This document shows positions 1 to 1,145 of a stretch of DNA of 58,530 nt, piece by piece. The notes below the pieces were generated by a model, which saw only the letters and a program-made list of their open reading frames with translations, did not search any database and was not told where the DNA came from. The stretch covers positions 1 to 58,530 of the forward strand of contig JANXBG010000007.1 of assembly GCA_025060715.1 (NCBI GenBank), given 5' to 3'. The position numbers were made by a program, and so were the translations under genes. The first letter of the stretch is position 1. Each line of letters begins with the position of its first letter. This DNA is from Caldifarciminota bacterium (GTDB taxonomy: Bacteria; Hydrothermota; Tepidihabitantia; Tepidihabitantales; DTDR01).

Positions 1-99
1 ATATTTATCAATTTACCAATCATTTAGATTTTAGCAGAGAAAGAGATAGTTATTAAAACCCAATTTAATATATATTCAAAAACTTCATTTGGGTATAAT

Positions 100-790
100 A
101 TGAATAATCTCACTTTAGAAAAATTAAAATCCTTAGGTTTAACTCATTTGGATGAAAACTCTGCTAATTTTCTAAATTGTTTATAGTTGGTAATGATTTT
201 TAAAATTGATATAAACATTTAAAGGTACGAAAATAAAAAACCTACTAAAGTAATATTTAACAAAAGAACAAATTAATTTAATTTTAAACGGGTTAAAAGG
301 ATTATAAAATCTTTGCAAAATAATCTAACCCTAATAATTATAAATAACTTATGGGAAAACAATTCACGGTATCCATTACATTCATATATTGTAGAAGTAA
401 TGGGAAAAAATAGGATATAAGTTAATACCTAAGTATTACCTTTGAATGCATTCTTGACTTTTGGAAACCACCAAAATGAAATAAAGAAGATGAAATGGAT
501 TAAAACGCATCCTCCTGGACCTACAGGTGTGGGAAAAACTTTAGAGGTTTTTAGGAATTGAAGAAAATAATATTTCTGATCCCCATGTTACAATGATTGA
601 GTTAAAAACTGTAAGAAAAAACTAAAAGATTATAATTACATTAAATCTGATTAATACAGAGAAAGAAATTTTAGGTTATTTTATTATATGTAAAAGCAAA
701 AACCAGAGGCAAGGCAAAGAATTTGATATAATGAAGTTTGGCTTTTATTTAGCCCAAAATTTCGCAGATTTCCGATTATTTGTTTTTCAA
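100..790 (+). pseudogene. degraded MvaI/BcnI-like type II restriction endonuclease remnant (multiple frameshifts and stops)
   Basis: Frame from 481 reads IKKMKWIKTHPPGPTGVGKTLE (to 546). After a frameshift, the frame from 548 reads FLGIEENNISDPHVTMIELKTVRKN* (to 625). Further downstream KAKTRGKAK and EFDIMKFGFYLAQNF occur in different frames. The order THxxGxTGxGKTLExxLGIEENN...ELKTxR matches my recollection of the MvaI/BcnI family. No intact ORF. Confidence 0.58.
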
Positions 791-894
791 ATTATTATCC
801 TTTTCACTATTTTTGTAAGGTAAAGGGACACCTCTTTAAATAAACTTCACATTTTTGTTGAAAATTTTATATAAGAATATATGCCTTAATTGTT

Positions 895-1137
895 TTGACA
901 ACAACTTTGGTATTAATTTTTAAAAAGGAATTGCCTAAATCTCTTGTTTTTCTTTTGATTATCTTATGGATACTAGTGATTATTGGTGTTATCTTTTGGT
1001 TGATAATTATTAGACCCGAAATTATTTTAAGTCCCTTAGATTTTTTAAGAGCCCTTTATGTTTTGGGAGGTCCTTTAATTTTTCTTCTTGGCTTTGTTTT
1101 GATTTGGGAGTTAATAAAATTTCTCTGGCGATTATGA
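895..1137 (+). CDS. small hydrophobic membrane protein (TTG start)
   Basis: 80-aa ORF with two hydrophobic segments; start uncertain because TTGACA at 895 also resembles a -35 box. Confidence 0.4.
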   Translation: MTTTLVLIFKKELPKSLVFLLIILWILVIIGVIFWLIIIRPEIILSPLDFLRALYVLGGPLIFLLGFVLIWELIKFLWRL

Positions 1138-1145
1138 ATTTTCTA

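What the first reader, a model, noticed from the sequence alone, without database searches (positions are those of the whole stretch)
100..790. Unannotated fossil of an MvaI/BcnI-like restriction endonuclease in the ORF-free first 0.8 kb
Seen directly: frame from 481 reads IKKMKWIKTHPPGPTGVGKTLE; after the GAG at 544-546 the frame shifts and continues as FLGIEENNISDPHVTMIELKTVRKN*. Joined with a 2-nt loss in one codon this gives THPPGPTGVGKTLE-x-FLGIEENN...ELKTxR, which I recognise as the conserved MvaI/BcnI endonuclease core. Downstream pieces (KAKTRGKAK, EFDIMKFGFYLAQNF) are scattered in other frames, and MNNLTLEKLKSLGLTHL at 100 could be the original N-terminus. No cognate methyltransferase is visible in the window, so this could record the decay of a restriction-modification system.
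Basis: partly seen in the sequence, partly recalled or inferred. Interest (0 to 1): 0.66.

Follow-up and report, generated by a model that had tools for sequence, protein, structure and literature searches.

The report
Dead remnant of a restriction-modification operon
The first 0.8 kb of this contig holds the broken remains of a bacterial DNA-cutting enzyme (MvaI type) and, just before it, the tail of the protective methylase that once partnered it, so it is an ordinary but clear record of a lost phage-defence system.

Summary
A frameshift-tolerant alignment of window 1-1145 to ten intact MvaI/BcnI endonucleases scores 222 against 37.6 +/- 5.4 for shuffles. The pieces are collinear from 478 to 811, with one 2-nt loss at 547, a stop, further frameshifts and large deletions. 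The DNA-recognition C-terminus is gone. The genome has no other MvaI/BcnI match, and two same-genus genomes have none.

Correction 1: a cognate methyltransferase is visible. In the closest intact loci a PF01555 methyltransferase precedes the endonuclease. Its C-terminal end survives at 328-470 (score 158.8 against 28.8 +/- 4.6; independent tblastn E 3.0e-5). So this is a decayed M-R operon, not an orphan endonuclease.

Correction 2: MNNLTLEKLKSLGLTHL at 100 is not the endonuclease N-terminus. Window 1-215 resembles other scattered, degenerate sequences of this genome, and 248-309 resembles the 3' end of an intact TPR gene.

The system is non-functional. Site avoidance does not tell this genome from its relatives. 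Interest is low to moderate.

The parts
1..215 (+). Copy of a degenerate sequence scattered through this genome; contains MNNLTLEKLKSLGLTHL. Upstream neighbour, not part of the R-M fossil.
   Evidence: 79-99% identity to places on C3, C85, C6, C28, C46 and others; no similarity to the endonuclease in 1-470 or to the methylase in 1-172.
248..309 (+). Short stretch like the 3' end of a TPR gene (YLTKEQINLILNGLKGL then stop). Upstream debris, not part of the R-M fossil.
   Evidence: 84% DNA identity to the end of an intact 242-aa TPR gene at C25:14807-14868; not methylase, since 173-327 scores 29.3 against 27.5 +/- 4.5.
328..470 (+). C-terminal remnant of the cognate PF01555-type DNA methyltransferase: TLIIINNLWENNSRYPLHSYIVEVM, EKIGYKL, LSITFECILDFWKP, with about 24 codons deleted at 424/425 and frame changes at 403 and 428.
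   Evidence: Frameshift-aware profile score 158.8 for 313-480 against 28.8 +/- 4.6 for shuffles; alignment; tblastn 63% identity, E 3.0e-5.
476..479 (+). ATGA: stop of the methylase frame overlapping a likely old endonuclease start, followed by a deletion of about 34 nt.
   Evidence: Sequence and junctions of L050, L047 and L005; assignment as the old start is inferred.
478..811 (+). Decayed MvaI/BcnI endonuclease: core 478-546 and 548-643 (2-nt loss at 547, in-frame TAA), then short collinear pieces to 811. About 53 and 15 codons are deleted and the C-terminus is absent.
   Evidence: PF15515 hit without joining, E 1.8e-4; score 222.5 against 37.6 +/- 5.4 for shuffles; traceback; DNA alignment.

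Best explanation
Window 328-811 is the decayed remnant of a Type II restriction-modification operon: an N4/N6-type DNA methyltransferase followed, with an ATGA overlap, by an MvaI-like endonuclease. When intact, the methylase would have marked the host's own sites and the endonuclease would have cut unmarked DNA. The cassette is absent from the two same-genus genomes and its family is patchy among relatives, so it was probably gained horizontally. It was then broken by truncation of the methylase, frameshifts, stops and mostly deletions. Nothing functional is left. Shown: homology, order, damage, and no other copy found in this genome. Inferred: horizontal gain, former activity, and a CCNGG-type target.
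For: Collinear frameshift-aware alignment of both genes in the M-then-R order of the closest intact loci. Unjoined PF15515 hit E 1.8e-4 and independent methylase tblastn hit E 3.0e-5. A hundred other tiles of the contig score at most 74.0 (endonuclease) and 59.4 (methylase), against 222.5 and 169.7 here. Closest solved structures of the intact L050 homologue are R.MvaI (E 2.1e-30) and R.BcnI (1.6e-17). Neither same-genus genome has either gene.
Against: The remnant is at a contig end, and reads were not available to confirm coverage. The upstream three quarters of the methylase are missing, so when and how it was cut off is unknown. Absence from relatives could also reflect loss there. Site avoidance gives no specific trace.
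Confidence: 0.94

Rival explanations
1. The genes are intact in the organism, and the damage is a sequencing or assembly artefact at a low-coverage contig end.
For: The window begins at the first base of contig C77, and the contig end lies in a sequence that recurs elsewhere in the genome.
Against: The damage includes deletions of about 53, 24 and 15 codons as well as single shifts, which is not a typical error pattern. The neighbouring gene from 1146 on is open and 80-82% identical to relatives. Similar degenerate sequences occur well inside other contigs.
Confidence: 0.04
2. The small open frames are expressed as a split or frameshifted protein with a new role.
For: A 39-aa open frame (442-561) covers part of the core.
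Against: Several stops and frameshifts, loss of the recognition part, and no conservation in the genus.
Confidence: 0.01
3. Chance resemblance in AT-rich DNA.
Against: Unjoined searches with two different proteins hit neighbouring stretches in the right order, and scores are far above dinucleotide shuffles and other tiles.
Confidence: 0.005

Closest known systems
R.MvaI (PDB 2OA9, 2OAA) and R.BcnI (2ODH), Pfam PF15515
   Same: The remnant keeps the conserved core THPPGPTGVGKTLE..FLGIEENN..IELKT; its intact homologue L050 matches R.MvaI best.
   Different: No open frame, no N-terminus, and no C-terminal HDHGT-FR part; cannot be active.
Intact M-R operons in Parcubacteria (L050), Chloroflexi (L047) and a same-class relative (L005)
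   Same: Same gene order and a close junction; about 56-57% identity in the endonuclease core and 61-71% in the methylase LWENN stretch.
   Different: Those genes are open over about 290-305 and 235-240 aa; here about half of the endonuclease and most of the methylase are missing.
Traces of lost Type II R-M systems (site avoidance, PMC4687349)
   Same: Both concern systems once present and now gone.
   Different: Here the trace is a pseudogene pair; avoidance of CCWGG or CCSGG does not set this genome apart from its relatives.

Membership tests
MvaI/BcnI endonuclease (PF15515) | Significant match to the family profile | tested here: met
   Unjoined E 1.8e-4, 21.5 bits, below the 25-bit cut-off; joined read 1.2e-9, 38.9 bits, above it; own profile 222.5 against 37.6 +/- 5.4.
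MvaI/BcnI endonuclease (PF15515) | Conserved E-x-K stretch of the core (IELKT) in order with the GxTGxGxTxE motif | tested here: met
   GPTGVGKTLE then IELKT, collinear with all ten homologues. That E-x-K is the catalytic pair is my own knowledge of the PD-D/EXK fold.
MvaI/BcnI endonuclease (PF15515) | C-terminal (H/R)(D/N)HGT-FR stretch | tested here: not met
   Alignment ends at profile position 196 of 231; 791-1145 is at chance level.
MvaI/BcnI endonuclease (PF15515) | Uninterrupted gene | tested here: not met
   Frameshifts, stop and deletions: a pseudogene derived from the family, not a working member.
Type II R-M system | Cognate methyltransferase gene next to the endonuclease | tested here: met
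   Only as a remnant: C-terminus at 328-470.
Type II R-M system | Methylase motifs DPF-G-G and TSPPY | tested here: not met
   Both lie in the missing part; 173-327 and 1-172 show no methylase similarity.
Type II R-M system | Cleavage and methylation of a CCNGG-type site | not testable with these tools
   Needs the bench; the remnant cannot be active.

The most novel reading that the evidence does not exclude
The scattered degenerate sequences of this genus are remnants of an element that collects or truncates gene ends, so that the TPR tail, the methylase tail and the endonuclease were brought together and broken by the same process. A comparable join is seen at the end of contig C3, where the same sequence lies beside a broken caspase-like gene.
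Probability: 0.08. Interest if true: 0.45.

Novelty: new member of a known kind. Interest (0 to 1): 0.2.

Why it matters
Decaying R-M systems are well known. This case is useful because both halves of the operon are still recognisable, no other copy was found in the genome, and ordinary gene calling would miss it. It suggests that single-frame annotation under-counts lost defence systems in AT-rich genomes known only from draft assemblies.

Tried and rejected
1) N-terminus at 100: rejected, it lies in a dispersed degenerate sequence. 2) The first methylase alignment began at 254: that part was rejected, because 173-327 alone is at chance level and 248-309 matches a TPR gene end. 3) Decayed PF01555 match at G000:C55:66-356 as the missing methylase half: rejected, tblastn with the cognate methylase finds nothing there. 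4) Intact PF01555 gene at C44 as the cognate enzyme: a different methylase, 37-38% identity over the shared domain only. 5) C5 methylase: none in the genome. 6) Site avoidance as a relic: inconclusive. 7) Dispersed sequence as a decayed caspase gene: the W/L029-type sequence does not match the intact caspase genes; only the C3-end locus carries caspase sequence beside it. 8) Plasmid DNA search of 1-1150: no match. 9) Further copies of the fossil in samples of 0.34-0.48 Mb each of G000, G001 and G002: none.

Full report
Setting. The window is a complete contig (C77, 58,530 bp) of a 1.6-Mb, 86-contig genome, so the finding lies at a contig end. No open frame of 100 aa or more lies before 1146. 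The first intact gene is a 366-aa RNA (uracil) methyltransferase-like protein on the minus strand (1146-2246; name from its sequence, not tested), 80-82% identical to copies in two same-genus genomes.

The observation. PF15515 (MvaI_BcnI) finds the place in an unjoined six-frame search of the whole genome at E 1.8e-4, and it is the only place in the genome. The joined 45-aa read gives 1.2e-9, though joining favours a match. For a less biased test I built a profile from ten intact homologues and aligned raw DNA to it with frameshift, stop and gap penalties. Window 1-1145 scores 222.5 on the plus strand and 40.0 on the minus strand; dinucleotide shuffles give 37.6 +/- 5.4, maximum 55.7. A hundred other tiles of the contig reach at most 74.0. 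The order is collinear: 478-546, a 2-nt loss, 548-643 with an in-frame stop, a deletion of about 53 codons, 644-679, a deletion of about 15 codons, then 681-811 in short pieces. The part from 656 on is above chance by itself (p about 5e-5). The C-terminal part is absent (791-1145 at chance level).

The missing methylase is there. In L050 (Parcubacteria), L047 (Chloroflexi) and L005 (same class) the gene directly before the endonuclease encodes a methyltransferase of 289-305 aa (PF01555 for L050 and L005) ending ...FEY(I/L)LDFW(K/R)P, whose end overlaps or abuts the endonuclease start. The methylase is also upstream in L004, L006, L014, L002 and L003, and downstream in L009 and L011. Window 328-424 reads TLIIINNLWENNSRYPLHSYIVEVM plus EKIGYKL, and 429-470 reads LSITFECILDFWKP; both align to the end of that methylase. 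Window 313-480 scores 158.8 against 28.8 +/- 4.6 for shuffles. A plain tblastn with the L050 methylase also finds 328-408 (63% identity, E 3.0e-5). An ATGA overlap survives at 476-479, followed by a deletion of about 34 nt that removed most of the endonuclease N-terminus.

What lies upstream. Window 1-215 resembles other scattered sequences of the same genome at 79-99% identity, with no long open frame at the copies looked at. MNNLTLEKLKSLGLTHL belongs to this and not to the endonuclease. Window 248-309 is 84% identical to the 3' end of an intact TPR gene on C25. The methylase is thus truncated and its upstream neighbour is unrelated debris.

Origin and fate. MvaI/BcnI genes occur over the curated cut-off in 15 of 100 genomes searched, and in neither same-genus genome. 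Synteny with G001 stops at about window 1150, where G001 continues with an acetyl-CoA-synthetase-like gene (name from sequence, not tested). This suits horizontal gain followed by decay, but loss in the relatives is not excluded. PMC4687349 reports that site avoidance can be a trace of lost Type II systems. Here CCWGG has an observed/expected ratio of 0.82, against 0.73 and 0.82 in the relatives; CCSGG has 0.64, against 0.72 and 0.54. There is no specific trace. The target itself is only inferred from the MvaI and BcnI relatives.

Limits. The profiles, penalties and Gumbel p-values are my own construction and are rough; the unjoined PF15515 and tblastn hits do not depend on them. No reads were available. 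Gene names marked as not tested rest on sequence inspection only.

Verdict. An ordinary but well-supported fossil of a Type II M-R operon with an MvaI-like endonuclease.

Noticed in passing
L029:952-1300 (G000:C3:8056-8404) and many other places in G000: A sequence of about 345 bp with common ends but differing flanks occurs in some 20 near-full, degenerate copies and many fragments in G000; fragments also in G002 (35 matches) and G001 (8). It carries an AGGAG-ATGG-like start but no long open frame and no Pfam or NCBIfam match. Possibly a dead mobile element.
   Followed up: partly
L028 / L055 (end of contig C3 of G000): The dispersed sequence shared with window 117-197 (99%) lies directly beside a broken caspase-like (Peptidase_C14) gene, 94% identical over 107 bp to an intact relative on C40.
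   Followed up: partly
L053:66-560, minus strand (G000:C55): A second decayed DNA methyltransferase (PF01555 E 1e-8, three stops inside) near a contig start, not related to the one here.
   Followed up: partly
L057 (G000:C25, near the contig end): Beside the TPR gene a reading with DPACGTGEFL and GNPPYFEF suggests an adenine methyltransferase with a frame break near its start; seen by eye only.
   Followed up: no
window 895-1137: An 80-aa open frame, rich in hydrophobic residues, between the fossil and the next gene; no Pfam or NCBIfam match.
   Followed up: partly
L050:4126-5001 and homologues: The intact cognate methylases have the DPF-G-G motif before TSPPY, and their N-terminal part matches the C-terminal part of PF01555 (22-113 to 132-221), so the domain looks circularly permuted.
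   Followed up: no
G000, G001, G002 samples of 0.34-0.46 Mb: CCSGG is the most depleted of 32 interrupted palindromes in G002 (0.54) and third in G000 (0.64); GAWTC is the most depleted in G000 (0.57).
   Followed up: no
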